DNA from: Mugil cephalus
Taxonomy: Eukaryota > Chordata > Actinopteri > Mugiliformes > Mugilidae
Reading direction: 5' to 3'
Length of the DNA stretch: 64,000 nucleotides
Assembly: GCF_022458985.1 (NCBI RefSeq)
Contig: NC_061788.1
Coordinates: forward strand, 1,775,826-1,839,825
The notes under the pieces were generated by a model. It saw nothing but the letters and a program-made list of their open reading frames with translations, did not search any database and had not been told where the DNA came from. Position 1 is the first letter of the stretch; every line of letters starts with the position of its first letter. The position numbers were made by a program, and so were the translations under genes. Shown in pieces: positions 12,869 to 37,930 of this stretch.

Positions 12869-15800
12869 CTAGACTTCAGCGTCTCTCATTTCATCATTGC
12901 TTCTTGTCAACTTTTTCCACATTCTTGCAGCGTACTGGATCCCACTCTGGAGGTGTTTGTTGGCTTGTTGAGCCATTTCTTTCATCTTCTGAACCTTCTC
13001 TGTGTCTCCTTTGTTTTTCATCTTCTCAATGAGGAAGTCCAAGTGGACATGAGTGGACACTGAATCAACATTCAGGGCGATGAGCTTAAGCCTTTCAACA
13101 TGTCGGTAGGCCTCCTCCAGCCACTGCTCTTTATCTTTTTCAAGATTTTCTATTTCTTGTTGAAGTTTTTCCAGAAGACTGGTTTTCTTTGCAGCTTCTG
13201 CTTTATTGCTTTCATACGTCTTTTTCATGTCTGTCAGTGTTTTCTTGACCTTCCGTGTCTTTTCCACATAGACCCATTTGTCTTTGACATGAGCTGATGC
13301 CAGACACTTACTGCTGCAAACGGTACAGCGGCCGTTCTTCATCACCTCACAGTATTCAGGTGTCCAGGCCACTGTGCATCCAGGATAGTGACAGTTCTCC
13401 TTACAATGTCTGCAACGGACGACTCCTTCAAAGAAGAACAGTCCCCACATCCTGCCACCAGTAGCTTCTTTTACTTTGTAGGGCTCATCAACTTCTACAG
13501 TGAACTCTTCGTTCATTTTCATTTCTTGTTCATGTTTCTTCAGAGCTTCTTTGGTCTGTCTGAGCTCTTCCTGCTTCAGTTCAGTCAAGTGAATTCTGTC
13601 GTTCAGGTTTTGGATGGAGGCCGTCAGTCTTATGCGTTCTTTCAGAACAGACAAAGTTTCCTCCAGTTTCTGAGGAGCAGTTTTTTCCATGAAAGCAATG
13701 AGTCCCTTCATTCCTTCAATCGATATTTGATGTGCTTCTTCTAGTTTCTGTGTTTGCTGTGATCGGTCTTGACGCTGGCGGTTGTTGAACAGGAAGTGAA
13801 CGGGCTGTCCCTCCTCATTTTTGGCACATTTAATCTTTGCGACTTTAAGGGCTTCAAGGGCATCTGTAGATGTTAACCCGTCTGAATGTGTCATGAGAGC
13901 TACGATGTTTTTCTCCAGGTCTTTTCCAAACAGAGACATCACTGAATTAAAGACGTATGACAGTCGGTCACTGAGTCGATTCTCTGTGGCCTTCATCACC
14001 AGACCCACAACATCCACTTCATGAACTCCGTCCTCCACCCGAAACCAGTCAAACAATCTTTGACTCACAACGACATCATGTTCTATTGTTTCGGTGCTTC
14101 CATATCCAGGAGTATCGATGATGGTCAGAGAGTAGGGCAGAGTTTGACCCTCAAAACCAAAGATCTTGTACACGATCACATCTGATGTCTGACTTTCTGA
14201 TTGACTTTTTTCCTTCTCCTCTAGGATATCGAACCAGACGTCATCCTCAAACTTCACTCCCATGGTGTAGTTGACCAGAAAGTTGACCAGAGAAGATTTT
14301 CCTGCTCCTGTTTCACCAACAAGTAAGATGGTTTTATTGGGCCAGTCCACATTTCTTCTACCAAAGGTCACTCTTCTTAAATTCCCAACAGGCTCTGTCT
14401 TTGTTGTCAGCTTGAAGCAGGAAGGAGATCCTTCTTGGATCACTTCACATTTTGAGATGATGCTTCTGAATTTTGACGACGTGTTAGTATCCCTGTAGTG
14501 GAGAAAACACATCCCAAAAAAGTTACAAAACCATCTGTAAAGAGTCTGGAAGCCACAAATAATCCACAGAGAGTCAGACAGATTGAAGACGACTGTTCCC
14601 CTCCACAGGAGTGGTCCACCAACAAACATCACTCCATCATAGTGGGAGAGGAACCAGAGGAACCCAGGGGAACTTCTAAGCAGCTAAAGGCCTCTCTCAC
14701 ATTGGCTGATGTTCATGTTGATGAATCCACTCAACAACCAAAGACACTGCTCTCTGTCCACAAAGAACATTTGGGACAATGTTTAGTGGACAGATGAGAC
14801 TAGGGGCGGGCGATATGACGATATTAAATCGTGAACGATTACAACGTGAAGACGATCTGTCAAACTGCAGAGATCATGGGATCGTCTAGGGCACATTCTA
14901 TAAATTGCAGTTCTATGCTGATGCACTGACGCACCAGACATATTACGTCGTCAACCTGACCGACCAATCATAGCGAATTACGGGCAGTGACGGGCTTTCT
15001 TACCCGCCTCCTTGTTGTGTGTGTAGAGGTAGCCACATGGAGCCATGGCTGAAAGTCAAATGGAGTTGGTCACTAAAACAAATTCTACTTCCATTATATG
15101 GAATTGGTTTGGATTTTCCTCAACTGCTGAAGCGCAGGAAAATGTTCTGTGCACAGAATAGGTTCGCACGTCGAACCTGTTCTGTGCATAAAACATTTCC
15201 CAAACAGCGAGGGGCCCGGTGGCACCGGCACCGCAGGCGGAGGCTGCAGCTAGTGTAAGACCAAAACAGTCAACATTAACACAGGCATTTAACAAAGGCA
15301 CTCCATATGACAAGTCAAGCAAGTGATGGAAAGAGGTAATAGAAGCAGTTACCTTTTATCTTGCAAAAGATATGGTACCGTTCAAGATGGTAGAAAACTT
15401 TCTGTTACTACTTTTGCAAGATTGCACTTTATTAGAATGTTGTTGTTGTTTACCTTAAACTTGATTGTTTGCACATGCAGGCAAAACTGCAACTACTTAA
15501 AATAGAATCTATTAAGAAAGGTTCTTTGAAGTAAATTGTCTGTTTTTCATTTTTCAATTTAAGATCGTGATAAAATCGAAATCGTGATTTTATTTTTAAA
15601 AAATCGTGATATGATATTTTTGCCATATCGCCCATCCCTAGATGACACCAGAGTAAAATAGTTTGGTTTAAAGTTTTGGGTATCGTCATGTTTGGAGATG
15701 AACCAACACTGCATTCCAGCATCAGAACCTCATCCGAACAAGCCCAAGAACACAAGTGGTTTTCCAAAAGAACGGTAAAGGGTCCCAATACTTTTAATTA

Positions 15801-16145
15801 AGCCTGCACATTCAGTCAGAGTGAAGAGTTTTAAAGTTTGTTAACAGCCAGAGAAATCTAAACATCCCTACCCAAGTAGAGTCTTAATTAATCTTTTCTT
15901 GGATTTTATGGCAACAAATATAATTTTACTTCAAGTGCATGAAATGTGCATCTTCTGTAACTGTTGTAAATCGATGATCAAACAACATTATCTCACTTTC
16001 TGTTGTTGCAGAACATGAAGACATGCCTTTAAGTTCACACAGTATCTGGCAAACCAAATCTAGAAAGTTCTATGCTAATCTACAGTATATATTATCATTT
16101 TGTTTTTTTAATACATCAAAATGTTAATGTTACTCACATTGCCAT
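12869..16145 (-). CDS. AIG1/septin-like P-loop GTPase with Cys-rich module, copy A
   Basis: Predicted cytosolic GTPase of 543 residues, exons 16145-16138 (ATGGCAAT) and 14492-12869; the joined start reads MAMDTNTSSKFRS. G1 is GETGAGKS at residues 62-69, G3 DTPGYG at 129-134, a G4-like MTHSDG at 203-208. Next come a charged helical region (about 276-330), a Cys/His-rich module (363-405: CRHCKENCHYPGC, CEVMKNGRCTVC, AHVKDKW) and a coiled coil (about 416-480). No signal peptide or membrane span. An open extension to 14632 adds 47 codons, but a strong acceptor (TTTTCTCCACTACAG|G) lies at 14493, so that stretch is intron. The 1.6 kb intron carries a Tc1-like remnant interrupted by a hAT element. 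The acidic loop after the G1 helix is short here. The family resembles uncharacterised fish G-domain proteins of the AIG1/Toc34/septin group; its G4 differs from GIMAP. Function unknown. Confidence 0.85.
14503..15800 (+). mobile_element. Tc1-like remnant in intron of copy A, split by a hAT insertion
   Basis: Two pieces, 14503-14800 and 15649-about 15800, are collinear with the uninterrupted Tc1-like remnant of copy B (24183-24880). The right piece ends with GTCCCAATACTTTT, a common Tc1 terminal phrase. It lies in opposite orientation to the GTPase gene. The same remnant at the same intron position in A, B and C, and a piece beyond the D exon, shows that it was there before the tandem duplications. 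Confidence 0.8.
14801..15640 (+). mobile_element. hAT (ZBED-type) deletion derivative with 8-bp target duplication
   Basis: The ends are TAGGGGCGGGCGATATG and, inverted, TAGGGATGGGCGATATG. The flanks GATGAGAC (14793-14800) and GATGACAC (15641-15648) are an 8-base target duplication with one mismatch, as expected for hAT. Copies B and C have the empty site (GATGAGACCAGAG). Inside, from 15043, a frame reads MAESQMELVTKTNSTSIIWN, the start of a BED-finger hAT transposase, and near 15241 EAAASVRPKQSTLTQAFNKG and TPYDKSSK, a later block of the same protein. The BED cysteines and the catalytic region between and after these blocks are missing and a stop follows the second block, so it is non-autonomous. 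Confidence 0.9.
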
Positions 16146-16198
16146 GGTGATTGTTGGACTGAGGTTTTCACAATGATGAAGGGGTGAGTGAATCAAGT
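16138..16198 (-). other. Start-codon exon of copy A
   Basis: A 61-base exon with a strong acceptor upstream (TTTTCTCTTATCCACAG|ACTT on the minus strand), a good initiation context (ATCACCATGG) and a donor directly after eight coding bases (ATGGCAAT|GTGAGTA). The same exon is conserved at 25430-25486 (B), 33281-33339 (C) and 37923-37980 (D), all with GTGAGT donors. Confidence 0.8.
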
Positions 16199-16341
16199 CT
16201 GTGGATAAGAGAAAAAAAAGTGATAATGGATCAATGATTTATTGCTAAATTAGAGGTTCCTGTCTAGTGCAAAAAACTCTTGGTAATCTTAAAGAGACAT
16301 TTGAAGTCATTTCATGGTTCATTCTGGAAGATGCTCTTTCC

Positions 16342-16395
16342 TGTGTCACTGGCTCATTGAATTGCAGCAAAGAGGAAGTCACATTATTGGTAGCA
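16342..16395 (-). other. Decayed 5' leader exon of copy A
   Basis: Copies B and D have a probable non-coding leader exon ending CAG|GTAAGAGC on the minus strand (ends at 25677 and 38168). The aligned site in A reads CAG|GAAAGAGC: the donor GT has become GA (16339-16340). If this exon is used in B and D, A must use another leader or another donor. The upstream limit of the exon is not visible. Confidence 0.45.
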
Positions 16396-16520
16396 TAGCA
16401 TAGGGATGCCTTTGCAATTTGACAACGATGTAACATTTATCACCATATTCCATTTCCTTAGTTTTCTTGTGTTTAGGGTTAGGACTGATTAATAAAACAT
16501 GTCACAGACATACTTTATCC

Positions 16521-17700
16521 AGTGGTGGCTGGTGAAAAATATTCTTGGTGGGGCTGATGTGACAGTACATTTCTCTGCCCAGTCCATCACATAAGAACTG
16601 AATCAACAGTCAGACAATGGCTGCAATTCAACAATGATTTAATCTCCTTTTCAAAATCACCAGTTGAACAGAAATAGTAAATTAACTATTTACAATTTTA
16701 TAAGACTCCAGTCCTGCTTTATCAAGGGTATCAAACACAATGCAATATTGTAGTTCTTGAAAGAACTTTACAGCAAGGCTATGAACAGCTGAATCTATAC
16801 AAATCAACAGTGAGTGAGTGAGTGGTGAGAGAGAGAAAGAGAGGTATGCTTGTGTTTCTACGGTGAGTGTAATATGAGTGAGTGGATGGATAGTTCTCTT
16901 TTTATAAAGAGCTTTGCTTGTCTGTCTTTCTGAGTGGCAAATTTCTCAATGACCCTGTGTTCTTATCAACCTCTTCATTGTGTTGTGTCCATCATCTAGC
17001 TGCATTGCTATGCTTTAAGTTGGTTTGTCCTGACTGTGTCCGTGTTAAGTACTTTTCATTTTAAAAAAGAATACAGGAAAAACAGAAAAATGCATTGGCT
17101 ATTCCACAGCCTGTCGGCCACGACTTCTGCTCCAACCAACTCCAGACAAAACTCCTTTTGTAGGCTTTATTTTTCTCCGTGGTCTGCTGGCTGATGATAA
17201 GATCGGCCTTGTAGGGTCTCAGCTCCATTGTCGTTTTCACAAACGGGCAGATAAGTAAGGATCTTACCGAATTTGGTGGAAGCTGCTGATTGCTTGTTAA
17301 GTTCTTCATCACTCTCTGACTGTCTTTTTTTTTTTAAACCAAGACTTTCGTGGCATTTTCTGTTGCTGGGGCGATATTTTCAACACCCTAAGGCCAACGC
17401 CAAGATTCTTTGCCACTGATTGGCCATTTATTTATTAATTTGCCTTGGCAACTGTACATGATTGGCTATTTTGCAGCACTTCTGGGGCACCCTGACCAGT
17501 GCCCCATGACGGAAACTATACGAATCTGTCTGCGAACATTCACTGGTGAATAAATGTCAATTGATGGAAATGTAATTTATATAAATCATACTGCATCTAG
17601 GCACACACACGGGTAAAACTGACATTTAAAACTGAATATATAAAAATATATTTTTATATGTATCCCCCTCCTATCAGGGAGGGCGGCGCCCCAGCACACA
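16521..17700 (-). mobile_element. hAT-like element with TTF-type zinc-finger transposase piece
   Basis: The left end CAGTGGTGGCTGGTGA is typical of a fish hAT family. On the minus strand 17312-17061 encodes a piece with RPYKADLIIS, KRSFVWSWLEQKSWPTGCGI and ANAFFCFSCILF, the TTF-type zinc-finger region found in ZMYM1-like hAT transposases. The catalytic region is absent, so it is a deletion derivative. The right border near the GGCGGCGCCCC stretch (about 17690) is a guess. Confidence 0.65.
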
Positions 17701-18937
17701 ACATTATTTTTGGCAGCTATTTTACATGTCAACATATTTTCTGAAACTTCAGATCAAACAATAAACACAGACGTTCAGAAGCAGAACTAGGTCTGAACAC
17801 ATACTCCTGAGAAAACTTGTCCGCCAGTTCATTCTAGAGGACAGCACTCATAACTACTGTTGTGGTAATTCAATTACAAATGTAATGATGTAAAAATATT
17901 AAAAGTGAAGCAAAGATAACATTTTAAATCTTGCACAATAAATTGCAGGCTTGTAACTTGAATGGTTTTCTGTTTTACTTTGTATTTGGACATATAGATG
18001 AGGATTCAGTCGAGGAACTACATTCATGGACAATTTCAGTTATATACTAAATACTAATCCATTATCCACTCTATGGTCACTGTTTAAGTGTGAGTCAATA
18101 AAAGATCAGAATGCAATAATGTAGCGCAAAATATCAACTAGTAAAGCACTTAGATGAGACTTACCTATTGGACTGGTTCACTTGTACAGCTTCAAGCTTT
18201 CTGAGATCTGTGCTGCATTATATTATTTCTTGTAGTGAATCCAGGTGGCGCACAGGTTGGTCTTTCTGGTTTTTCCAGTCTTTCACTTTCGGGTAACTGC
18301 TTGACAGAGCAGGAATTCCACTCTCAATTTGGCCTTGTGCCCTTGAAAAAAATATCTGCTGTTAGGCAACAGTGGCCTTGATGTCCTGCGGTTTTGGGGT
18401 TTTGTAGGCTTTAACACCACAAGCATCTACTGAGAGAAAAAAATATGTCTGTTGATGATGCTCTCTATTCTTATTGGTCAACTCATCAGTGGTGGATCTG
18501 ATTGGAGCCTGGCATGAACCTCTCGGATGGGCAATATTAGCAATTGACACCAATCAATCAGCAGGAGACTTTATCAAACGCACTGTGATGTTGAATTTTC
18601 ACTGAAGAGAGAGAAAAAGTTGACTGAGGTCAGACTGTGTGATGAATTAACGGACGAATAAGCCTGAGTTTGTTACCATTAGATAAGCATTGCTTGTACC
18701 GTAACGTTATGTCGTTTCAACGTTGACCCACTTTTAACGTGCCGAGTACCGACTATAGCCTAGAGCAAACGCTAATTAGCTTGCTGTCAAGTTTTTCCTT
18801 TGTGGAGCTTTAACAGGGTTCCCACGGATCCTTGAAAAGTCTTGAAAGACATTGAATTCATTCATGGAAAAACAAGGCCTTAATTGGCATTAAAATGTCT
18901 TGAATGTTTCAACAAATGCTAAGTAGGATGTTATGAT
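17700..18937. other. 5' flank of copy A, partly shared with copy D; no gene
   Basis: 17940-18240 matches 38760-39005 upstream of copy D (shared runs such as TTGTAACTTGAATGG and GGAACTACATTCATGGACAA), marking the outer end of the duplicated unit. 18240-18800 is not repeated elsewhere in the window. 18815-18920 resembles a dispersed fish repeat (TCCTTGAAAAGTCTTGAAAG). No coding or splice pattern is seen; a promoter for copy A may be here but cannot be placed. Confidence 0.5.
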
Positions 18938-19267
18938 TTTGTGGATCATTCCATAGATCCTTGATCAGTTTGGGATCTCATGAATTTGGAGGTCAGGTCA
19001 ACAGCTTGTGCTGTTCTTCATGTTTTTATTTTTTATTTATTTATTTTTTTGTTTTTTGAGTTGTCCCTAAAGTGTTTGTGTGCATCCTGCTGTCATCAAG
19101 GAGTGACATTGCTATGGGGTGGGGATCCCTGGTCTGGTCTAAAGTAACATCCAGACGAATGAATGCCAGGTCCAAAAGTTTCCAGAAGAACACTGAATTA
19201 TCAGATGATGTTTTAAATGTTATTTCTTTTCCTGTCAGTTGTCATAATGTCGTGGCTGATCAGTGTA
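18938..19267. mobile_element. Tc1-like internally deleted copy with intact end
   Basis: Same sequence as 9955-10245, but continuing to the family's right end, where GTCATAATGTCGTGGCTGAT and CAGTGTA are close to the usual GTCATAATGTTATGGCTGAT terminus. Internal transposase sequence is gone. Confidence 0.8.
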
Positions 19268-19547
19268 TAACAGTGATTGTACAATAGTATTATGGATTAT
19301 TCAGACCTTCTCATGGAGACTGCAGTGACATTGTCAGAATTGCACACCATCTAACATAATGGTAAAAAAATATATATTTAGTGCATCCTTCTACATTTTA
19401 TTTAGTGTGCTCCCCTTTGTCCTATGAGTTTTCTCAGACAAATTTATTATTATACGTCCGTTACTCTTATTTGTCTGGCCCTTGAGAGTTTATGAAAGCC
19501 ATAAACATGAGTTATTTACAAACACCTCTGGCTTAACTTCCCTAGTG

Positions 19548-22538: not shown

Positions 22539-25437
22539 CTAGACTTCAGTGCCCCTCATTTCAACCTCGCTTTTTGTCAACTTTTTCCACATTCTTGCAG
22601 CGTACTGGATCCCACTCTGGAGGTGTTTGTTGGTTTGTTGAGCCATTTCTTTCAACCTCTGAAACTTCTCTGTGTCTCCTTTTATTTTCATCCTCTCCAT
22701 GAGGAAGTCATAGTGGACATAAGTGGACACTGAATCAACATTCAGGGCGATGAGTTTAAGTCTTTCAACGTGTCGGTAGGCCTCCTCCAGCCACTTCTCT
22801 TTATCTTTTTCAAGATTTTCTATTTCTTGTTGAAGTCCTTCCAAAATACTGGTTTTCTTTGCAGCTTCTGCTTTGTTGCTTTCATACCTCATTTTCACTT
22901 CTTCCACTGTTTTTGTGACCTTCCGTGTCTTTTTCACATAGACCCATTTGTCTTTGACGTGAGCTGATGCCAGACAGTTCCTGCTACAAACCGTACAGCG
23001 GTCGTTCTTCATCACCTCACAGTATTCAGGTTTCCAGGCCACTGTGCATCCAGGATAGTGACAGTTCTCCTCACAATGTGTGCAACGGACAGCTCCTTCA
23101 AAGAAGAACAGTCCCCACATCCTGCCACCAGTAGCTTCTTTTTCTGTGTAGGGCTCATCAACTTCTATAGTGAACTCTTCATTCATCTTCATTTCTCGTT
23201 CATGTTTCTTCAGAGCTTCTTCGGTCTGTCTGAGCTCTCTCTGCTTCAGTTCAGTCATGTGAATTCTGTCGTTCAGGTTTTGGATGGAGGCCGTCAGTCT
23301 TATGCGTTCTTTCAGAACAGACAAAGTTTCCTCCAGTTTCTGAGGAGCAGTTTTTTCCATGAAAGCAATGAGTCCCTCCATTCCTTCAACCGATATTTGA
23401 TGTGCATCTTCTAGTTTCTGTGTTTGCTGTGATCGGTCTTGATGCTGGCGGTTGTTGAACAGGAAGTGAACGAGGTGTCCCTCCTCATTTTTGGCACATT
23501 TAATATTTGCGACTCTAAGGGCTTCAAGGGTATCTATAGGTGTTATCCCGTCTGAATGTGTCATAAGAGCTACGATGTTTTTCTCCAGGTCTTTTCCAAA
23601 CAGAGACATCACTGAATCAAAGACGTATGACAGTCGGTCACTGAGTCGATTCTCGCTGGCCTTCATCACCACACCCACAACATCCACTTCATGAACTCCA
23701 TCCTCCGACCGAAACCAGTCAAACAATCTTTGACTAACAACGACATCATGTTCGATTGTTTCGGTGCTTCCATATCCAGGAGTATCGATGATGGTCAGAG
23801 AGTAGGGCAGAGTTTGACCCTCAAAACCAAAGATCTTGTACACAATCACATCTGTTGTCTGACTTTCTGACTGATTTTTTTTCTCCTCCTCCTCCTCCAG
23901 GATGTGGAACCAGACGTCATCCTCAAACTTCACTCCCATGGTGTAGTTCACCAGAAAGTTGACCAGAGTAGATTTTCCTGCTCCTGTTTCACCAACAAGT
24001 AAGATGGTTTTATTGGGCAAGTCCACATTTCTTCTACCAAAGGTCACTCTTCTTAAAGTCCCAACAGTCTCTGTCTTTGTTGTCAGCTTGAAGCAGGAAG
24101 GAGATCCTTCTTGGATCACGTCACATTTTGGGATGATGCTTCTGAATTTTGATGACGTGTTAGTATCCCTGTAGTGGAGAAAACACATGCAAAAAAAGTT
24201 ACAAAACCATCTGTAAAGAATTTGGAAGCCACAAATAATCCATAGAGAGTCAGACAGATTGAAGACGACTGTTCCCCTCCACAGGAGTGGTCCACAAACA
24301 AACATCACTCCATCATAGTGGGAGAGGAACCAGAGGAACCCAGGGGAACTTCTAAGCAGCTAAAGGCCTCTCTCACATTGGCTGATGTTAATGTTGATGA
24401 ATCCACTCAACAACCAAAGACACTGCTCTCTGTCCACAAAGAACATTTGGGACAATGTTTAGTGGACAGATGAGACCAGAGTAGAATAGTTTGGTTTAAA
24501 TGTTTGGGCATCGTCATGTTTGGAGATGAACCAACACTGCATTCCAGCATCAGAACCTCATCCCTCCATGAAACATGGGGGCGCTAATGTCCTGGTTTGG
24601 GCCTGTTCTGCTGCATCTGCTCATCATTGATGGACCAATGAACTGTGAATTCTACCAGTGAACTCTGAAAGAAAATGGAATGAAGGATGAATGTTTAGGT
24701 ATGGCCAATCAAAGTCCTGACCTTAATCCAACTGTTGCAGCATCAGTTCATGAGAGGGAACTACCAACATCTCAGAACGGAAGTGGTTCTGTTTTGAGGA
24801 ATGAAGTCAAATTCCTCCAAGCTTCTGCAGACACTAATCAGCTGTTACCACAAACATTTAGTTACAAGGTACAAATTGATATTGTAACGACTTGCCTGTC
24901 ATTCAAAAGTCGTGTGAGAGGATGAGATAAGGTCCTGTATATTTTGTGTGACGTGTTGCTGCTGGTTCATGTAAGCACGCTGAGTCCAGGTGAGTTTCAA
25001 GCATTTAATAAACCTTTCAGATTACACATGCCTAAAGATGGAGAACGTGTACACTGGTGGCGAATATATAACAAAGCAATAAACTGAACAAAAGCGGTCA
25101 ACAAAAATTGCGGCTACATGAGTCAACCCTCAAATTAGACAACAATTCAAAATGAAAAGTAGTTTCAAAAGAAAGGGGGAAGAAGAGAAACGTGGTGGCA
25201 GACAGTGGTGAGTGAAGCACTTCACGAGTGTTAGCTGAGGAACTACGGAGGAGAGACAATAGAATAAAGTTCCACTTCTACTCTTCTTTCTTTGATGTTA
25301 GCATTAGTTAGCCTAGCTAGCAGAGTAGCGTGTCCAGGTCTAGTGTCTCATTAACCTGTTCAGATGTACTTATCTGAGTTATAGATAGTAATATATACAT
25401 AGATGGTTAATTATTTTAATGTTACTCACATTGCCAT
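22539..25437 (-). CDS. AIG1/septin-like P-loop GTPase with Cys-rich module, copy B
   Basis: 545 residues by joining 25437-25430 (ATGGCAAT) to 24168-22539; the start reads MAMDTNTSSKFRS as in copy A. Motifs: GETGAGKST in the P-loop, DTPGYG, MTHSDG, then CTHCEENCHYPGC and CTVCSRNC in the Cys-rich module, followed by the charged coiled coil and the shared tail GIQYAARMWKKLT. The acidic run after the first helix is expanded (LEEEEEKKNQSE) by extra GAG-type codons compared with A. The open frame can be read 47 codons beyond the splice acceptor into antisense Tc1 DNA (to 24308), which I regard as intron. The intron is about 1.26 kb and lacks the hAT element present in A. Upstream, a probable leader exon ends at 25677 with CAG|GTAAGAGC, so copy B has the most complete gene model of the array. 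Biological role unknown. Confidence 0.86.
24183..24880 (+). mobile_element. Tc1-like remnant in intron of copy B (best preserved)
   Basis: Reads from the N-terminal third to the C-terminus of a Tc1-like transposase in several frames: a KHGG-type block near 24565, the hallmark NQSPDLNP at about 24707-24733 and the tail LRNEVKFLQASADTNQLLPQ near 24795-24855. The D-D-E/D blocks are not in one frame. It is in opposite orientation to the host gene. Confidence 0.85.
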
Positions 25438-25676
25438 GGCGATTGTTGGTGATTCGCACAGTGATGAAGGAGCGAGTGAATGAAGTCTTTGAAAAAGAGA
25501 AAAAAATAGTTTCTGTTGAATATGACAGTGATAACGGATCAATGATTTACTATTAAACTAGAGGTTCCTGCCTTGTGCAACAAAACTCTTACATTGGTGA
25601 ATTTAGGTCTAACACTTAACATTCATATTCAGACATTTTAAGTAATTTCATGGTTCATCCTGGATGTTGCTCTTAC

Positions 25677-25745
25677 CTGCTCGTTGTTGCTTGTTGAATG
25701 GCAGCAGAGAGGAAGTCAACCTGGTTTCACATAAACACCCACACT
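25677..25745 (-). other. Probable 5' leader exon of copy B
   Basis: On the minus strand this segment ends in CGAGCAG|GTAAGAGC, a near-consensus donor, about 190 bases upstream of the ATG exon. The same segment is found at 38168-38215 (D), and with a damaged donor in A; in C it is deleted. No ATG-initiated frame of note lies in it, so it is taken as 5' UTR. Its upstream edge is uncertain. Confidence 0.5.
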
Positions 25746-28560
25746 ATTCCAAACTTCCCCTGGAGTACAGCAGCATGACATTATTTAACCAGAAAATTAA
25801 AGTCACTCACATTAAATCACATCAATCAACAACAAGTTGCAATTTGACAATGATTTAATATTTATTTGAAACCTTATATATTTTCCTTATTAGAGCACAC
25901 AGCTTAAATAGAAATACATGCATCTATGTCATCTGAATAAAGTTAAAGTTCTATAAAAAAACAAACAAACAAAAAAAAATACTTACTTTATCACTAAACG
26001 ATCATTCAGGTGTTTCTGCAGATGATTTAGAACTTCAGGTTACTGCACAGACCAGAGACACACAAGGAGACGACACAACCAAACATCTATTACCAGCAGA
26101 GTCTAGTCACACACAGAAACTCATCTTACGGCTTTATTGAACTTTCTTTTTTAGAAATAAGGAACTAAGAAAGAGAGAACTAGATTAAAGAAGACAACCG
26201 CAACAAATAGAAGCAGTTGGTGGTTCACTGTTTGAATAGTACAACAGTCCTTCACAAATGCAATGTAAGCAGCCAGTACATGTTACTGGCAGAGACGAAG
26301 ACGTCATCAGGTGGTCGAACCACTTCTTTTTCAGACAGACAACAAACTGCACACATCATCTTTTTTCCTGCTTCTCCTTTTGTCGCTTCCTTATTTATGA
26401 TTGTTTCATAAATTCAAATTTGACAAGACGAGCTTGTGATTGTAGAGTAAACAAAGAATATTAAAACTTATCTCAGCAGCCTCAGTACTTGTAGTTGTCT
26501 CCTACACATCTCGTTATCATCTGAACACATTTATCCAATCCGAATGTCTCTCGCTTAGACCAACTGTAACTAACTACACTATTTAATGCAGATATTTTTA
26601 GCCGTTTTTTTTTCTGAAACTTCAAATTAAAGTTCAACAAGATCTATGCATGAACACATACTCCTGAGGTAACGTGAGGACAGGACTCCTAACTATTGTT
26701 GTGCTAATTAAAATACAAATATAATGAGAAAGAACATTTCAAAAAGTCTCACTGCAGCCACCAACACCATATGTTAAATCCAGCCGAAGCATCAATGTTG
26801 ACCCAAGAAAATGGTAAAAAATATACATAAAAGATGTAAATATTAATCATTTTACTCACCTGAGCTTAAGAAACTATTCAGAGTCCTCATATTGCCCATA
26901 TTGATGATCTGAATGTTTCCCAGGCTGGGTCAGGTTAGCTAGGACCAGGAATACCCCACAATATCCAGCTTTTCCAAGTCCACCATGAAAATGTCTTTTT
27001 AAGAAGATCTACAACCAAATCAATGGCCTCTCCTCTTGCCTCCATCGTAGCTTCAACAAATATCAAAATGTTAATGGGGATGATTTGCTTGTGCAGCTCT
27101 CAACAAATGAACATGTCCTGCTAGCTTGGTTTAAACACACCGGTTCTCTGACGTCCAATGACGTCCGTAGATCACAGAGAAGGAATAAAAATACCAACTG
27201 GAAATATGACTGGTTAAAGGAACAACGATGTGTTTTAGGTTCAGTCATTAAGGTCCAGGCAGATACCTTTGACTTTGGCTGAAATATGACGATGGATAAA
27301 TGTAAGTCAGCGATTTTGATGAGGTTTAGGCCGGCAGAGAAGGCAGAGACACTGAAGTGTGCTGATAAATGTTGAACCACACCAACTGCAATTACTTCCA
27401 CAATCTCAATGTTTCGGTTTCAAGTACTCCATCAAAAAAGTGACTTGGGTAGAAGTTTCTTAAGCACCACACTGATGATATAGTTTTTGATCAATCACTG
27501 TTCAATGACCCTGATCATTTGGAGAAGTTATGAGATTATAATGGGTGTGTATTGCGCGGAATGTTTGTGCCAGAGTGGTGACATCATCACTTAGAGTGGG
27601 GGAAGTTGTCTGAAATTGTCTGAAACTTTTCTTTTTTCACGCTCAACCCGGCTACAATTTATACTCTACACACATGATTTTTTCCACACTTGTAGACAAA
27701 CTTGCTCTCTCTCTCACATTGTGCTCGTCAAAGCAGTGAGACGTACAGAATTTAAACTGTGAGCCTCTGAGCATGGTCACATCCACCTCTGCTCACCATT
27801 GACTGTAAAGATTTTGTCAGAAAAGCAGAAGGGACCCGTGTTTTAAACTCGCACTTGTCTCCAATATATTTAATCTAGAAAGACAAAAAACATATCAAAG
27901 TCTTGAGGAAGGTCTTAAGACGCCCATGGTCTGCATGTTTTTCTTATAGGAGCTAACATTTTGTCACAGTAAGCCCAAATGTGAGACCAGCGCATAGGAA
28001 GAGAAAAAATTGCCCCTTTTCTTCACATTTTAGTCTCTGCCCAGCACGCCTCTGTCGTCATTGTCAACCACCTCAAGTTGCAGCTGATCACTGTCTCCCA
28101 TACATTTCTGTTACAACAGTACACACCAACACACACTCCTCTCCCACACACACACATAAACACACAGGTAACTTTATGTTATTACACCTATAGTTATATA
28201 TTAGCATTAGCATTTCTATCATAGGCTCTAATAGCGTCTAAATTGAAAAACTAATTTAAAAATGTTGAAGAGCTGTTGTGTTACTGACTGAACCAACAGA
28301 TTTGAAAAGCAGTCAGAGATATATTTTTACATATATCTGCCAAAGAAAAGAGAAGTAAATGGGTCGTTGCATTAGAAGAAACAACTGGAATCCACCAGGT
28401 GTCAACCTCCAGGTCTGAGCCACGAAGCCCATGCGGAAGTGCTCTTATGAACTTACAATTCATCGAGTGGCTACTTGTGCCTGCAAAAAGGAGCAAATCC
28501 CCATAGACCCCCATGTTAAAAAGCACAACTTTACAGCATTATTAAACATGTTTACAGCCT
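25745..28560. repeat. 5' flank of copy B, duplicated upstream of copy C
   Basis: 25860-27420 matches 33640-35160 almost throughout (including a segment ending GATAAA|GTAAGT on minus that could be another leader exon, 26000 and 33805). 27480-28050 matches 35165-35600, where it is fused to copy D. The short ORFs here (for example 27063-27401) recur only because the DNA is duplicated. 28050-28560 is not duplicated and has a small CACA-rich patch at 28120-28165. No gene recognised. Confidence 0.7.
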
Positions 28561-28564
28561 GGTA

Positions 28565-29335
28565 CAAAAAAGGTGGGTTTGGAGGAAAGGTAGAGTTGGG
28601 TGTCGTCGGCATGTGTTTTCTGATGTTGTGGCCAAGGGAAAGGATGTAGATAAAGGAGGGTTCCCAGGACAGAGCCTTGGGGAATACCGGATGTGACAAG
28701 GGAGGGTTGGGAGCAGTGGGAGCTGACCTTGATGTAGTGGGTGCTGCTGGAGAGGTAGGACTTTAACCAGAGAAGCGGTGTGTCAGTGATGCCAATGGAG
28801 GAGAGTCTGTTGATGAGAACTGAGTGTGATTGTATTGCAGGCCCAGTTAGGTCGAGGAGGATGAGGATAGATAGGAAACCGGAATCTGCAGCAGTCAGGA
28901 GGTTGGTGATGATTTTGAGTACAGACGTTTTGATGCTCTGGCGGGGGCGGAAACCTGACAGAAATTCTTCATAGATGTTATTATGGGATAAGTGGGGGTG
29001 AAGCTGAGTGGCGATTGTTTTTTCTATGATTTTGAATGAGAAGGGGAGATTTGAGATGGGCCAGAGGTTGTTGAGATTGGGGTCTGAGCTAGGTTTTTTG
29101 AGAATGGGGGTTATGGCAGCTGTTTTGAGTGATAAAAGTATGCCGGAGGAGAGCGAGGAGTGGATGATGGTGGTGATTACTGGTGCTAGGTCAGGGGGGA
29201 CAGACTTTAACTAGGGATGTGGGAAGGGGATCCAGGTGGCAGGTGGAGGGCTTTGATTTCTGAATAAAGGAAGTGACTTCTGTCACGGTGGGGAATGTGA
29301 AGCAAGTCAAAGGGTGGCCGAAGTCAAAGGGCAGC
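28565..29335 (-). mobile_element. L2-type LINE fragment (reverse transcriptase)
   Basis: The minus strand reads as part of a non-LTR reverse transcriptase in order: AAITPILKKPSSDPNLNN, FIIEK-type block (SFKIIEKTIATQLHPHL), a GFRPRQSIKTSVLKI stretch, LLWLKSYLSSSTHYIKVSSH, SGIPQGSVLG and finally ADDTQLYLS (28582-28610), the catalytic core. Between PQGSVLG and ADD a short segment is lost, and the first D-containing block is altered. Both the 5' region and the end after ADD are missing. The wording matches L2/Maui-type fish LINEs. Confidence 0.85.
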
Positions 29336-30838
29336 CCTGGACTCCCAGTGTGGAGCACTCTTGAATCATCTGTACTTTAACAACTGATTAACCCTTGTAA
29401 TGTGATAGAAAGTTACCCGCATCTTTTGTGTTAGGAGATCAAAATTGTCCCACAACTTAATCCGGCTCAAAATTGTCAAAAACATTTCTCATCCAGTTTT
29501 GTCCACTTTATATCTGACTTGTTATTCATTAATATTCATAACCACAGTATTATATGGCATTTTCTGGGCCAATAGACCTTTTATCTTTGAAACTAAAACA
29601 TTGTCTATGAGCCAGTATTCTTGGCAGGTCATATCTGACTCATAACACCACATATGTCACTTTCTTGTTAAAGACTTTCAGAATTTACTAAGATGGTGAA
29701 AAAATATTTAGTTGTGTTTAAATATCTGTTCTTGGGGATAGTATGAAGCTCATCCTCATAAAAGCAAGGAAAATGTACTTTTTGAACTTGGTCAAATTTG
29801 ACCCTAACACAATATAAGGGTTAAAGAACCTGCAGCAACATTTACTCTTGTGTTGAGGCACTTGTACTTTACTTAAATATTTTCATTTTATTAAAGTATT
29901 CTTAGACTTTTTAGACTTCTACAACCAAAATATTTGAGAACTTGTTTTTACAGATGAAACCTTTAAACAAAGAAAGCTGAAATAATTCATCAACTCATTA
30001 TTATGACGTATAGACTATTATAAAAATAGCTAAATCAGTCCCACAAGGATCAGTTTTAGTCCTGAATGCAAGGAGTTGCTCCCAAAGTATATGAATTTGA
30101 GTGAATTTACTCATAGAAGTGATTTAAGTAAAGTTAAGTGACGTAAAAGTGTATAAAATGTGTTTCAGGGTACTGCAGTTACCCGTAATTTTAATTTGAA
30201 CATTAACTTTCTATTCACTAGGGAATGTATCCCCAGAAAAATAATGCTCTTTGGCCAATGAGACGAAGTAGAGACACATTGTCCATATTTATACTCGGGT
30301 AATTCTATTCCCCTAAGTCATACCCAAGAAAATACAACTTGAAAGCAGGAAAACATCAGAGATAACATATGTTCACAAACTATTCTTAATTTATTTTGTC
30401 AGAACTTGACAGAAATCTGAGGTTTTAAATCACAGACAGGTTGTTTCAACAATCATGAAATAATTCTTCAGCTTCATTCTCATCGGCTTAATGACAGAAA
30501 TGAATCAACTTGATGAAAGATAATCAGGAATGCACAAGTTATTTACAAGATGTTGGAAGCGGAATTAATAGTAACAATAAACTATTGATCTGTAACATTA
30601 TTGTAAAATCGGTGAAAAAAATTACAGATTATTTTCATTCATTGAAAACAGAAATATCTACCTGCTCATTTCAAATGATTCATGAAACAAACCTTTGACC
30701 ATATTTACAAAAACATCCAAAATGATTATGTTCATTGAGAGTTAACACATTTCATCTGAATCAACACTTAAACTTGTCTGTAGGTTCGAACTAGTATAAT
30801 CTTAAAATAAACTGAATAAACTGCAGATTATTCTGAGT
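29336..30838. other. Region between the LINE and copy C; 3' flank of copy C
   Basis: 29336-29880 shows no gene. From about 29890 the sequence pairs with the 3' flanks of copies A and B (from about 11520 and 21480), but is shorter. It holds the presumed 3' UTR of copy C, with a candidate AATAAA on minus at 30390-30395. Confidence 0.65.
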
Positions 30839-33288
30839 CTAGACCTCAGTGTCTCTCATTTCATCATCGCTTCTGGTCAACCTGCTCCACATTCTTGCAG
30901 CGTACTGGATCCCACTCTGGAGGTGTTTGTTGACTTGTTGAGCCATTTCTTTCAACCTCTGAAACTTCTCTGTGTATCCTTTGATTTTCATCCTCTCGAT
31001 GAAGAAGCCCAAATGGACATGAGTGGACACTGAATCAACATGCAGGGCAATTAGCTCTAGTCTTTCAACGTGTTGGTAGGCTTCCTCCAGCCACTTCTCT
31101 TTATCTTTTTCAAGATTTTCTATTTCTTGTTGAAGTTTTTTCAGAAGACTGGTTTTCTTTGCAGCTTCTGCTTTATTGCTTTCATACCTATTTTTCATGT
31201 CTGTCAGTGTTTTCTTGACCCTCCGTGTTTTTTCCACATAGACCCATTTGTCTTTGACATGAGCTGATGCCAGACAGTTCCTGCTACAAACGGTACAGCG
31301 GCCTTTCTTCATCACCTCACAGTGTTCAGGTTTCCAGGCCACTGTGCATCCAGGATAGTGACAGTTCTCCTCACAATGTGTGCAACAGACAGCTCCTTCA
31401 AAGAAGAACAGTCCCCACATCCTCCCATCAGTAGCTTCTAGTTCTTTGTAGGCCTCATCAACTTCAATAGTGAACTGTTTATTCATCTTCATTTCTTGTT
31501 CATGTTTCTTCAGAGCTTCTTTGGTCTGTCTGAGCTCTCTCTGTTTCATTTCAGTCATGTGAATTCTGTCGTTCAGGTTTTGGATGCAGGCCGTCAGTCT
31601 GATGCGTTCATTCAGAACATCCGCGGTTTCCTTCAGTTCCCGAGCAGCAGTTTTTTCCATGAAAGCAACGAGTCCCTTCATTCCTTCAACAGATATTTGA
31701 TGTGCTTCTTCTAGTTTCTTTCTTTGTCTTTGCTGCGATCGGTCTTGATGCTGGCGGTTGTTAAACACGAAGTGAACGAGCTGTCCTTTATTATTTTTGG
31801 CACATTTAATCGTTGCGACTTTAAGGGCTTCAACGGCATCTGTAGGTGTTAGCCCGTCTGAATGTGTCATGAGAGCTACGATGTTTTTCTCCAGGTCTTT
31901 TCCAAACAGAGACATCACTGAATTAAAGACGTATGACAGTCGGTCACTGAGTCGATTGTCTGTGGCCTTCATCACCACACCCACAACATCCACTTCATGA
32001 ACTCCATCCTCCGACCGAAACCAGTCAAACAATCTTTGATTGACGACGACATCATGTTCGATTGCTTCAGTGCTTCCATATCCAGGAGTATCGATGATGG
32101 TCAGAGAGTAGGGCAGAGTTTGACCCTCAAAACCAAAGATCTTGTACACGATCACATCTGTTGTCTGACTTTCTGATTGACTTTTTTTCTCCTCCCCCTC
32201 TAGGATATCGAACCAGACATCATCCTCAAACTTCACTCCCATGCTGTAGTTGACCAGAAAGTTGACCAGAGTAGATTTTCCTGCTCCTGTTTCACCAACG
32301 AGTAAGATGGTCTTATTGGGCATGTCCACATTTCTTCTACCAAATGTCACTCTTCTTAAAGTCCCAACAGGCTCTGTCTTTGTTGTCAGCTTGAAGCAGG
32401 AAGGAGATCCTTCTTGGATCACTTCACATTTTGGGATGATGCTTCTGAATTTTGACAATGTGTTAGTATCCCTGTAGTGGAGAAAACACATCCAAAAAAG
32501 TTATCAGACTATCTGTAAAGAGTTTGAAGCCACAAATAATCCACAGAGAGTCAGACAGATTGAAGACGACTGTTCCCCTCCACAAGAGTGGTCCACCAAC
32601 AAACATCACTCCATCATAGTGGGAGAGGAACCAGAGGAACCCAGGGGAACTTCTAAGCAGCTAAAGGCCTCTCTCACATTGGCTGATGTTCATGTTGATG
32701 AATCCACTCAACAACCAAAGACACTGCTCTCTGTCCACAAAGAACATTTGGGACAATGTTCAGTGGACAGATGAGACCAGAGTAGAATAAAATTAGTTGA
32801 CTAGACTCAGTCTGTGGTAGTAATAGATGTTTGGTTGTGTTGTGTCCTGGTGTCTCTGGTCAGTGTAGTTAATCTAATCTGAATCTCTGCTACTCCGAAT
32901 CATCTGCAGAAACACCTGTACGATCATTTGGTGATAAAGTATGACTGTTTTTTGTTTGTTTGTTTTTTAGAACTTTAACAGTTATTCAGGTGACATAGAT
33001 GAATGTATTTCTATTTTAAGCTGTGCACTCCAATAAGGAAAATATATAAGATTTCAAATAAATGTTAAATCACAGTCAAATTGCAAAGGCGTCCTCTCCT
33101 CTTCTTCTTGGTTTGATTCTTCAAAATCTGATTTCTAATGTAAGTGAGACTTTAATTTTCTGGTTAAACAATGTTAGGCTGCCATACTCTAATACTCTAG
33201 TGTCTCATTAACCTGTTCAGATTTACTTATCTGAGTAATAGATATATACATGGATGGTTAATTATTTTAATGTTACTCACGTTGCCAT
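30839..33288 (-). CDS. AIG1/septin-like P-loop GTPase with Cys-rich module, copy C
   Basis: 546 residues by joining 33288-33281 (ATGGCAAC) to 32471-30839; the start reads MATDTNTLSKFRS. P-loop GETGAGKST, DTPGYG, MTHSDG, the Cys-rich module (CCTHCEENCHYPGC, CTVCSRNC) and the coiled-coil tail are all intact. Compared with A and B it has two extra residues in a Q/R-rich stretch (SQQRQRKKLEE) and a divergent segment after MEKTAA (RELKETADVLNERIRLTACI). Unlike A and B, the frame does not run through the acceptor far into antisense Tc1 DNA. Its ATG exon sits inside the loop of a large inverted duplication (32805-33190 and 33540-33920), and no leader exon like that of B and D is found between 33500 and 33560. 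Whether this copy is expressed therefore needs transcript evidence; its coding frame looks undamaged. Confidence 0.83.
32500..32793 (+). mobile_element. Tc1-like remnant in intron of copy C
   Basis: Same intron position and orientation as in copies A and B, but it stops at the point where the inverted duplication begins, so its right half is missing. Confidence 0.8.
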
Positions 33289-33920
33289 GGCCATTGTTGG
33301 ACTGATTTGCACGATGAAGAAGGAGCAAGTGAATCAAGTCTGAGGACAAGAGAAAAAAATAGTTTCTGTCAAATACAACACTGATAACGGATCAATGGTT
33401 TACTACTAAAATAGAGGTTCTTGTCTCATGCAACAAAACTGTTACGTTGGTTAATTTAGGTCTACCACTTGACATTCATATTCAATAACAAACATTTGAA
33501 GTCATTTCATGGTTCATTCCATTCCAAACTTCCCCTAGAGTACAGCAGCATAACCTTATTTAACCACAAAATAACAGTCTCACTTAGATTAAAAATCTGT
33601 TTCTAAAGTATCAAACCAAGAAAAAGAAGAGAGGATGCCTTTGCAATTTGAAAATGATTTAACTTTTTCAAAAAAACCTTATTTGTTTTCCTTATTAGAG
33701 TGCACAGCTTAAAATGGAAATGCATGCATCCATGTCATCTGAATAAAGTAAAGTTCTATGAAAAAAAAAGAAAAAAACCCACAAAAGTCACAGACTTACT
33801 TTATCACCAAATGATCATTCAGGTGTTTCTGCAGATGATTTAGAGCTTCAGGTCACTGCACAGACCAGAGACACACAAGGAGACAACACAACCAAAGGGC
33901 TATTACTACCAGGGTCTAGT
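32805..33920. repeat. Inverted duplication around the start exon of copy C
   Basis: 32805-33190 read backwards matches 33540-33920 over some 380 bases. Shared landmarks: ATCATCTGCAGAAACACCTG, CATTTGGTGATAAAGTA, AGCTGTGCACTC and the stretch around CAAATTGCAAAGGCGTCCTC. The right arm is the normal 5' flank (as in B, about 25770-26110); the left arm is the extra, inverted copy placed in the intron. The left arm shares AGATGTTTGG with B rather than the right arm's version, so it may derive from another unit or from an earlier state. The spacer of about 350 bases contains the ATG exon. Confidence 0.85.
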
Positions 33921-35506
33921 CACACTCAGAAACTCATCTTACGGCTTTATTGAACTTTCTTTTTTAGAAATAAGGAACTAAGAAAGAGAGAACTAGATTA
34001 AAGAAGACAACCGCACCAAATAGAAGCAGTTGGTGGTTCACTGTATGAACAGTACAACAGTCCTTCACAAATGCAATGTAAGCAGCCAGTACATGTGACT
34101 GGCAGAGACGAAGACGTCATCAGGTGGTCGAACCACTTCTTTTTCAGACAGACAACAAACTGCAAACAGCATCTTTTTTCCTGCTTCTCCTTTTGTCGCT
34201 TCCTTATTTCTGATGATTTCTTTCATAAATTCAAATTTGACAGGACAAGCTTGTGATTATAGAGTATACAAAGAATATTAAAACTTATCTCAGCAGCCTC
34301 AGTACTTGTAGTTGTCTCCTAAAAATCTCGTTATCATCTGAACACATTTATTCAATCCGAATGACACTCCCTTAGACCAACTGTAACTAACTACATGATT
34401 TCATGCAGATATTTTGAGACATTGTTGTTTTTTCTGAAACTTCAAATTAAAGTTCAACAAGATCTATGCATGAACACTACTCCTACATACTCCTGATGTA
34501 ACGTGAGGACAGGACTCCTAATTATTGTTGTGCTAATTCAAGTGCAAATATAATGAGAAAGAACATTTCAAAAAGTCTCACTGCAGCCACCAGCACCATA
34601 CATTACATCCAGCAAGAGCATCAATGTTGACCCAAGAAAATGGTAAAAAATATACATAAAAGATGTAAATATTAATCATTTTACTCACCTGAACTTAAGA
34701 AACTATTCAGAGTCCTCGTATTGCCCATATTGATGATCTGAATGTTTCCCAGGTTGGGTCAGGTTAACTAGAACCAGGAATATATCCAGCTTTTCCAAGT
34801 CCACCATGAAAATGTCTTTTTAAGAAGATCTGCAACCAAATCAATGGCCTCTCCTCCTTCCTCCATTGTGAGTTTAACAAATATGAAAATGTTAATGGGG
34901 ATGATTTGCTTGTGCAGCTCTCAACAAATGAACATGTCCTGCTAGCTTGGTTTAAACACACCGGTTCTCTGACGTCCAATGACGTCCGTAGATCACAGAG
35001 AAGGAATAAAAATACCAACTGGAAATATGACTGGTTAAAGGAACAACGTTATTATGATGTGTTTCAGGTTCAGTCGTTAAGGTCCAGGCAGATACCTTTG
35101 ACTTTGGCTGAAATATGACGATGGATAAATGTAAGTCAGCGATTTTGATGAGTGTTTTCATAGATGATATAGTTTTTGATCAATCACTGTTCAATGACCC
35201 TGATCATTTGGAGAACTTCTGAGATTATAATGGGTGTGTATTGCGACTTTGTAACTTGCTCTGTCTTTCACTTTCTGCTCGTCAAAGCATCGAGACGTAC
35301 AGAATTTAAACTGTGAGCCTCTGAGCATGGTCACATCCACCTCTGCTCACCATTGACTGTAAAGATTTTGTCAGAAAAGCAGAAGGGACCCGTGTTTTAA
35401 ACTCGCATGTGTCTCCAATATATTTAATCTAGAAAGACAAAAAACATATCAAAGTCTTCAGGAAGGTCTTACGACGCCCATGGTCTGCATGTTTTTCTTA
35501 TAGGAG

Positions 35507-37930
35507 CTAACGTTTTGTCACAGCAAGCCCAAATGTGAGACCAGTGCAGAGGAAGAGGAAAAATTGCCCTTTTTCTTCACATTTCAGTCTCTGCCCAGCA
35601 CGCAGAGTCAGTCTGATGCGTTCATTCAGAACATCCACGGTTTCCTTCAGTTTTTGAGGAGCAGTTTTTTCCATGAAAGCAACGAGTCCCTCCATTCCTT
35701 CAACCGATATTTGATGTGCATCTTCTAGTCTTTGTCTTTGTCTTTGCTGCGATCGGTCTTGATGCTGGCGGTTGTTGAACAGGAAGTGAACGGGCTGTCC
35801 CTCCTCATTTTTGGCACATTTAATATTTGCGTCTTTAAGGGCTTCAACGGCATCTGTAGGTGTTAGCCCGTCTGAATGTGTCATAAGAGCTACGATGTTT
35901 TTCTCCAGGTCTTTTCCAAACAGAGACATCACTGAATCAAAGACGTATGACAGTCGGTTACTGAGTCGATTCTCGCTGGCCTTCATCACCAGACCCACAA
36001 CATCCACCTCATGAACTCCATCCTCTGACCGAAACCAGTCAAACAATCTTTGACTAACAACGACATCATGTTCGATTGCTTCAGTGCTTCCGTATCCAGG
36101 AGTATCGATGATGGTCAGAGAGTAGGGCAGAGTTTCATCCTCATAACCAAAGATCTTGTACACGATCACATCTGATGTCTGACTTTCTGACTGACTTTTT
36201 TTCTCCTCCTCCTCCTCTAGGATATTGAACCAGACGTCATCCTCAAACTTCACTCCCATGCTGTAGTTGACCAGAAAGTTGACCAGAGTAGATTTTCCTG
36301 TTCCTGTTTCACCAACGAGTAAAATTGTTTTATTGGGCCTGTCCACATTTCTTCTACCAAAGGTCACTCTTCTTAAAGTCCCAACAGTCTCTGTCTTTGT
36401 TGTCAGCTTGAAGCAGGAAGGAGATCCTTCATTTTCTTCACATTTTGAGATTCTGAATTTTGATGATGTGTTAGTATTTCTGTAGTGGAGAAAACACATC
36501 ATAAGAGTCATTATAAATAATGGAAATCATTGTATGTGACCAGTACTCTCCACTCATTGGTAATTGCACTTATAAACAGTTTATAACTCAAAGTACCAGC
36601 CCTGCTCTGTTCGCCTAACTAACCATTATTACATTTCAGCGAGGCGTACAGGTTAATCTGTTTCCATCAATGTAATAAAACTCAGGTGTGGTTCAGTTCC
36701 TGGTTTAGTTTCTATGAATCAGGGACTTGTCTCATGTTTGTGCTGAAGTGTGTGATGAAAACGGACAAAGGAGCTTTGTGAGGAGCTCAGAAAAAGAGTT
36801 GTTGTTGCTCATCAGTCTGGAAGCCACAAATAATCCACAGAGAGTCAGACAGATTGAAGACGACTGTTCCCCTCCACAGGAGTGGTCCACCAACAAACAT
36901 CACTCCACCATAGTGCATAGAGCTCACAGCAGATACAGATTGCAGAAGTATTACATAAAACTCAAACAACACTGTCAACAGGTCAGTAGGAGGCCTCTGA
37001 GGGATGACAAACTTCAGACTACAGCGAAGGCAATGTGTGTTTTCAAGTTTTCAGTGACAGTAGGAGAACTCCCTAAGGGACACCGGACTGACACAAGTCA
37101 ATCCTCAAATTAGACAACAATTCAAAATGAAAAGTAGTTTCAGGAAAAGAAAAGTTGAAGAGGAAAAATTAAAAAGCAGACAGGTACTTTGATCTCCTGG
37201 TTTTCCTACCAATGTATTAAGCCATACACCAACACATCTTATCAGGTATTCTTCCATGACGTACATAGGAGTGTCCCTAATGAACTGGCCAGTGTATGTT
37301 TATTACAACATATTCTTGGGAAACATGTGTCTGTCATTTTCGTCCATATTTGTACTATAGGTGACACTGTGACTGAGTCTTTAGATTATCGTCCATGTTT
37401 GGAACCAACAACCAACCAAGTCGTGAGGTTCGGCTTGTTCCTGTAACCGTGCAACACTGCAGTGAGTTCTTCTTTTTAAATGTACATTTTAAATAACTAG
37501 TACAGATCATTACTTTTCTGCAACATTTTTCACCTAGGCCTTCAATGAAGTCCAACCTCATTCAAAACACGTCTTAATCCGATCGTTATGACGCCACTGC
37601 TAGAGAAACATTCAACATCATATGGACATGCAATAAAACATGTTTTGTCTCATGCACAGAGGTGAATGCCAGTAGGAGACCTCCCTAAGGGACGCCAGAC
37701 TGACAAGGGTCAACCCTAAGGGATTAACTGAGGAACTACGGAGGAGAGACATTTAAATAAAATTCCACTTCTGCTCTTCCTTCTTTGATGTTAGCATCAA
37801 TTAGCTTAGCTAGCAGAGCAGCGTGTCCAGGTCTACTGTCTCATTAACCTGCTCAGATGTACTTATCTGAGTAATAGATAGTAATATATACATGGCTGGT
37901 TAATTATTTTAATGTTACTCACGTTGCCAT
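35507..37930 (-). CDS. AIG1/septin-like GTPase copy D, truncated, with a new C-terminus
   Basis: 326 residues by joining 37930-37923 (ATGGCAAC) to 36479-35507; start MATNTNTSSKFRISKCEENE, three residues shorter than the others near residue 20. The GTPase domain is complete: GETGTGKST, DTPGYG and MTHSDG. After NERIRLT the family sequence stops at about 35602 and some 30 codons follow from DNA that in unit B/C is intergenic (compare 27960-28050): it ends in a hydrophobic FFLFLCTGLTFGLAVTKR. The helical region, Cys-rich module and coiled coil are gone. Acceptor, ATG exon and leader exon (donor at 38168) are all preserved, so it could make a G-domain-only protein. It may equally be a decaying copy; the intact frame over the whole G domain favours recent origin or use. 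Confidence 0.68.
36720..36915 (+). mobile_element. Tc1-like remnant near copy D
   Basis: Matches the part of the 4230-4905 remnant around 4660-4850 read on the other strand (GTGAGGAGCTCAGAAAAAGA, GAAGCCACAAATAATCCACA). It lies in the copy D intron about 240 bases from the large exon, so unlike A-C it is not directly joined to the acceptor. Confidence 0.7.

What the first reader, a model, noticed from the sequence alone, without database searches (positions are those of the whole stretch)
12869..37930. Four-copy tandem array of an undescribed-looking GTPase with a Cys-rich module
Seen: four same-strand frames (543, 545, 546 and 326 codons) with P-loop GETGAGKS, DTPGYG and MTHSDG, followed in three copies by a Cys/His cluster and coiled coil. 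All keep matching splice sites. Known: fish have lineage-specific expansions of AIG1/GIMAP, GVIN and IRG GTPases, some in immunity. Inference: this is one more such expansion, with G4 and C-terminal architecture unlike GIMAP, and is the best candidate for a poorly described system here.
Basis: partly seen in the sequence, partly recalled or inferred. Interest (0 to 1): 0.75.

Follow-up and report, generated by a model that had tools for sequence, protein, structure and literature searches.

The report
Fish GTPase family with metal-tipped stalk
Four neighbouring fish genes belong to a larger, fast-changing family of probably immune GTP switches with an unusual, probably metal-binding stalk, and relatives elsewhere in the same genome are joined to a pore-forming type of protein, which suggests a defence machine that may not yet be described.

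Summary
The minus strand carries four copies of one gene, each an 8-nt coding exon plus one large exon: A 543, B 545, C 546 codons, and D 326 codons, truncated by a rearrangement. They are recent duplicates (91-96% DNA identity by region). The 25 intact members aligned share an AIG1/Toc/septin-class G domain and a C-terminal module with 8 Cys and 2 His invariant; a search found the module in no other gene here. What differs is the C-terminus: a predicted antiparallel helical stalk ending in a Cys/His (probably zinc) tip. In the chromosome-7 branch, two intact single frames fuse this GTPase to a stonustoxin-type perforin-like module plus fibronectin III. Best reading: a diversifying, probably immune, GTP-driven dimerising switch, possibly a partner of a perforin-like effector. 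Expression and copy number in other species could not be tested.

The parts
12869..14492 (-). copy A, large coding exon (stop included)
   Evidence: Pfam AIG1 39.1 bits, cut-off 27
16138..16145 (-). copy A, 8-nt first coding exon
22539..24168 (-). copy B, large coding exon (stop included)
   Evidence: AIG1 32.1 bits
25430..25437 (-). copy B, 8-nt first coding exon
30839..32471 (-). copy C, large coding exon (stop included)
   Evidence: AIG1 39.3 bits
33281..33288 (-). copy C, 8-nt first coding exon (a second in-frame ATG lies 6 nt upstream)
35507..36479 (-). copy D, truncated large exon: G domain kept, Cys module and coiled coil lost, new tail of about 32 residues
   Evidence: AIG1 50.1 bits
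37923..37930 (-). copy D, 8-nt first coding exon
35603..35607 (.). break point where copy D's exon joins the 5' flank of unit C
   Evidence: self-comparison
32273..32296 (-). copy C P-loop GETGAGKS (G1)
31856..31867 (-). copy C G4 motif THSD
31160..31426 (-). copy C Cys/His module and flanks
22860..23126 (-). copy B Cys/His module and flanks
13190..13456 (-). copy A Cys/His module and flanks

Best explanation
The array is a recent tandem expansion inside a larger multigene family of AIG1/Toc/septin-class GTPases. SHOWN: intact G motifs, an invariant Cys/His module, one shared exon structure in the window, about 33 loci, a high rate of protein change that is below neutral in two of three window pairs, and fusion of the same GTPase-plus-module to a stonustoxin-type perforin-like module in paralogues. 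PREDICTED: the G domain is followed by a long antiparallel two-helix stalk with the Cys/His module at its tip. INFERRED: GTP binding makes G domains pair through the G interface, and a conserved arginine at the place of the GIMAP arginine box supplies the finger for hydrolysis, as in GIMAP7 (that arginine is recalled). The probably metal-binding tip recognises or tethers a partner or membrane. The family acts inside the cell in defence, some members fused to, and the others possibly working beside, perforin-like effectors. Copy D probably does little, or acts as a G-domain-only modulator.
Against: No transcript, protein or infection data. The AIG1 match is weak (32.1-50.1 bits; the best GIMAP-type locus of this genome has 237.6) and the cut-off is not specific: the same profile passes it in 7 of 14 prokaryotic control genomes. 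The A-B pair does not differ from neutrality (p 0.27). Five of 16 chromosome-end copies have lost the G4 Asp, so not every copy need bind GTP. The window copies carry no stonustoxin part. High dN/dS can also come from relaxed constraint; in the contig-7 group even the Cys region reaches a median of 1.07. The five full-length models vary (mean pLDDT 52.6-72.0) and residues 348-360 beside the Cys module are below 50. Zinc binding is assumed from the residue pattern.
Confidence: 0.5

Rival explanations
1. Ordinary intracellular GTPase duplicates without an immune role, for example membrane-trafficking or cytoskeletal scaffolds of septin or Toc type, expanded by drift.
For: Best fold matches include Toc34 and septins; a Septin profile also passes its cut-off in 4 of 4 copies.
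Against: About 33 loci with pseudogenes and truncations, median dN/dS of 0.51-0.83, and fusion with a perforin-like module fit arms-race families better than housekeeping.
Confidence: 0.2
2. Decaying duplicates: most copies, the window ones included, are on the way to pseudogenes.
For: D is truncated; 4 of the 20 chromosome-end loci carry stops; A-B does not differ from neutral.
Against: Three full-length open frames of 543-546 codons here and 16 uninterrupted ones near the chromosome end; 10 Cys/His positions invariant; A-C and B-C below neutrality; by eye, an acceptor at the same place in most of the 16 chromosome-end copies.
Confidence: 0.12
3. GTP-controlled switch for intracellular stonustoxin-type pores: chromosome-7 members carry the pore module in cis, the window members act on such proteins in trans.
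For: 5 of 9 chromosome-7 GTPase loci have a stonustoxin helical domain 0.6-1.0 kb upstream on the same strand, two of them in one intact frame.
Against: 4 of 9 chromosome-7 loci have none so placed, and no such domain was found on chromosome 19; no interaction data; the window copies form their own branch.
Confidence: 0.18

Closest known systems
GIMAP / AIG1 GTPases
   Same: G domain over the AIG1 cut-off; colinear arginine box to G4 and an F-x-N type G5; top or tied fold matches; large AIG1-type expansion in the same genome (152 matches, this family included).
   Different: Low AIG1 score; P-loop GE(T/S/I)G or GAT(G/R) where the GIMAP loci seen have GKTG or GRTG; R-L instead of R-F in the arginine box; four predicted N-terminal strands before the G domain; a Cys/His stalk after it.
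Toc34/Toc33 and septins
   Same: Same class by fold; Septin profile over cut-off for the G1-G3 part.
   Different: Septin match covers only about 80 residues; different C-terminus.
Stonustoxin-like (SNTX) family of fishes
   Same: Chromosome-7 paralogues carry the SNTX perforin-like, helical and thioredoxin part. PMC10566576 reports four neighbouring sntx-like genes that lost the third exon while the second runs on to the stop (passages seen), possibly the same gene type.
   Different: Window copies have no SNTX part; in the fused paralogues FN3 domains, this GTPase and the Cys module stand where venom SNTX has PRYSPRY.
Rad50 zinc hook and other stalked proteins
   Different: Z within the range that the tool calls common for long helices; 8 Cys and 2 His where the Rad50 hook has one CxxC (recalled); GTPase head, not ABC ATPase.

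Membership tests
GIMAP/AIG1 | AIG1 domain (PMC8201404 passages), here over the curated Pfam cut-off | tested here: met
   32.1-50.1 bits, cut-off 27, 4 of 4 window copies. Weak: best GIMAP-type locus 237.6 bits, and 7 of 14 prokaryotic control genomes also pass the cut-off
GIMAP/AIG1 | arginine box to G4 colinear with GIMAP | tested here: met
   R-L-x14-FG-x11-T in 26 of 26; the stricter pattern (S/T/A third, D/N last) in 20 of 26 family sequences, 7 of 8 GIMAP loci and 1 of 10,400 shuffles
GIMAP/AIG1 | family similarity restricted to the N-terminal G domain, followed by a helical segment and in some a membrane anchor (PMC8201404 passages) | tested here: not met
   A conserved Cys/His module and stalk follow; so filed as AIG1-class, not as a GIMAP
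Septin | septin GTPase domain over its whole length | tested here: not met
   profile over cut-off, but positions 6 to 74-75 of 280 only
Septin | filament formation | not testable with these tools
   none
Stonustoxin-like | SNTX helical and thioredoxin domains in the window copies | tested here: not met
   no such match in A-C at E 1 (the list for D shows 25 of 36 families); no PF21109 locus on contig 19
Stonustoxin-like | same domains in chromosome-7 paralogues | tested here: met
   PF21109 rings in 0 of 14 control genomes
Dynamin-like immune GTPases (IRG, GBP, GVIN) | dynamin-type profile over cut-off | tested here: inconclusive
   Dynamin_N 12.9-27.2 bits, cut-off 27; only truncated copy D reaches it, marginally

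The most novel reading that the evidence does not exclude
A previously undescribed vertebrate defence module: an AIG1-class GTPase with a zinc-tipped stalk that acts as a nucleotide-controlled trigger for intracellular stonustoxin-type perforin-like effectors, with the venom toxins of stonefish an offshoot of this immune lineage in which PRYSPRY stands in place of the GTPase end.
Probability: 0.18. Interest if true: 0.85.

Novelty: new variant of a known kind. Interest (0 to 1): 0.5.

Why it matters
Stonustoxin-like genes are expanded in percomorph fishes, non-venomous ones included (PMC10566576, passages), and salmonid studies list them among vaccine-, resistance- or parasite-associated genes with unclear roles (PMC6369366, PMC7316828, PMC13142024, passages). 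A GTPase built into the same protein offers a testable control mechanism, and a defined Cys/His stalk family gives expression and knock-out studies a clear target. The C-terminus has no convincing match in the Pfam library used.

Tried and rejected

Literature for a described GTPase-stonustoxin fusion: searches. None of the titles or abstract beginnings listed shows one, but several lists were capped at 10-20 of many papers, only passages of six papers were seen, and most subscription journals are not held. So it may well be in print. Schwefel 2013 (GIMAP7) is not held.

Limits: other fish genomes are not held, so copy number between species was not tested. Counts rest on six-frame matches and are lower bounds. 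dN/dS is pairwise Nei-Gojobori and may be distorted by gene conversion. The neutrality test used rounded counts and treats the three pairs singly.

Full report
WHAT IS THERE. The window lies at 1.776-1.840 Mb of contig 19 of a 635-Mb genome in 24 contigs, by size and gene content a fish (inference). Four genes lie head to tail on the minus strand. Each has an 8-nt coding exon ending at a GTGAGT donor and one large exon after a CTCCACTACAG acceptor. CDS identity between copies is 91-96% by region. By eye, an acceptor lies at the same place in most of the 16 uninterrupted copies near the chromosome end, but an 8-nt first exon of this type was not found there with a simple pattern, so the first exon is supported for the window copies only.

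COPY D. D matches its sisters down to 35607; below 35603 the DNA matches a 5' flank (35253-35603 against 27699-28049 of the B unit, 95%). A rearrangement has replaced the C-terminal half of D by a tail of about 32 residues.

FAMILY SIZE. The copy C protein finds 39 matches in the genome. Grouped by hand they make about 33 loci: 4 in the window; 20 between 16 kb and 861 kb of the same contig (16 uninterrupted, 1 with one stop, 3 degenerate); and 9 at 1.39-1.54 Mb of contig 7. In a protein tree of 25 members with a midpoint root, window A-C form one branch (100/100) inside a contig-19 group (100/100), and contig 7 forms another (100/100); the chromosome-end copies are not resolved as one clade, and 11 of 22 inner branches are weak. 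A query with the Cys module and following helix of one contig-7 copy finds 33 matches at E up to 0.05, each in one of these loci, so in this genome the module appears to be the family's own.

FUSION. On contig 7, two intact single frames (1244 and 1118 aa) hold stonustoxin helical and thioredoxin domains, one or two FN3 domains and then this GTPase, with the Cys module at the end. Residues 12-491 of one of them match solved stonustoxin beta at E 7.1e-115. Of 9 contig-7 GTPase loci, 5 have the stonustoxin helical domain 0.6-1.0 kb upstream on the same strand and 4 do not; one such domain on contig 7 has no GTPase beside it. Seven further stonustoxin loci lie on contig 16, where the family search found no member. 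A stonefish genome paper reports four neighbouring sntx-like genes that lost the third exon while the second runs on to the stop (PMC10566576, passages). This may be the same gene type, but the word GTPase does not occur in that paper's main text.

SELECTION. Pairwise dN/dS medians: window A-C 0.59, chromosome-end copies 0.83, between the two 0.51, contig 7 0.66; the part between G domain and Cys module is near 1 in the first two sets (1.01, 1.07), and the Cys region of contig 7 is 1.07. Against neutrality, A-C p 0.011, B-C p 0.0026, A-B p 0.27. Constraint is present but loose, as in immune families; relaxed constraint is not excluded.

MECHANISM. Shown: motifs, module, fusion, copy number. 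Predicted: stalk with tip. Inferred: GTP-dependent pairing with an arginine finger (paraseptin GTPases such as TOC and AIG1/GIMAP have one, PMC11238149 passage; the GIMAP7 position is recalled), recognition or tethering by the tip, and a role in cell-autonomous defence. The last is supported by company only: GIMAP genes rise in zebrafish and some invertebrates on infection (PMC8201404 passages), and stonustoxin-like genes appear among immune-associated genes in salmonids.

NEIGHBOURS. A claudin, a septin and an acyl-CoA dehydrogenase flank the array. Placement between claudin-5 and septin-5 orthologues would fit the recalled vertebrate order, but was not tested.

VERDICT. A real, recently duplicated set of genes of a larger AIG1-class family with an unusual C-terminus and a telling domain fusion: a new variant of a known kind. 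Interest 0.5, because function and species distribution remain untested.

Noticed in passing
L039, L043, L046 (contig 7, 1.42-1.53 Mb): Intact frames joining a stonustoxin-type perforin-like module, FN3 domains and this GTPase.
   Followed up: yes
contig 16, 0.48-1.50 Mb: Seven stonustoxin helical-domain loci, two of them in frames with a stop, without a GTPase of this family.
   Followed up: no
contig 19, 166k, 492k, 748k, 827k, 831k copies: G4 Asp replaced by Asn (four) or His (one), so guanine specificity may be lost.
   Followed up: partly
L012:3088-5469: One chromosome-end copy has a long repetitive tail rich in Glu, Gly, Asn, Gln and Lys (Pfam Mucin-like 46.3 bits); the 892-aa frame in L038 has a similar acidic repeat tail.
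   Followed up: no
contig 8, 0.5-1.5 Mb: Large GIMAP-type expansion with several AIG1 domains in one frame of up to 997 aa; 152 AIG1 matches in the whole genome, this family included.
   Followed up: no
window 28545-29210: Reverse transcriptase fragment (RVT_1, 36.8 bits) between copies B and C.
   Followed up: partly
window 36814-36915: About 100 bases upstream of copy D are 97-99% identical to stretches upstream of the large exons of A (14543-14644), B (24223-24320) and C (32526-32621), more alike than the exons; by eye the frame at 4475-4945 holds the same stretch in the other orientation, so it may be a mobile element.
   Followed up: no
window about 26898 and 34727, minus strand: By eye, a matching possible 5' exon with a short upstream ATG frame (MGN...) before a GTGAGT donor in the B and C units.
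   Followed up: no
window 40209-40555: A direct repeat of about 175 bases at 89% identity.
   Followed up: no
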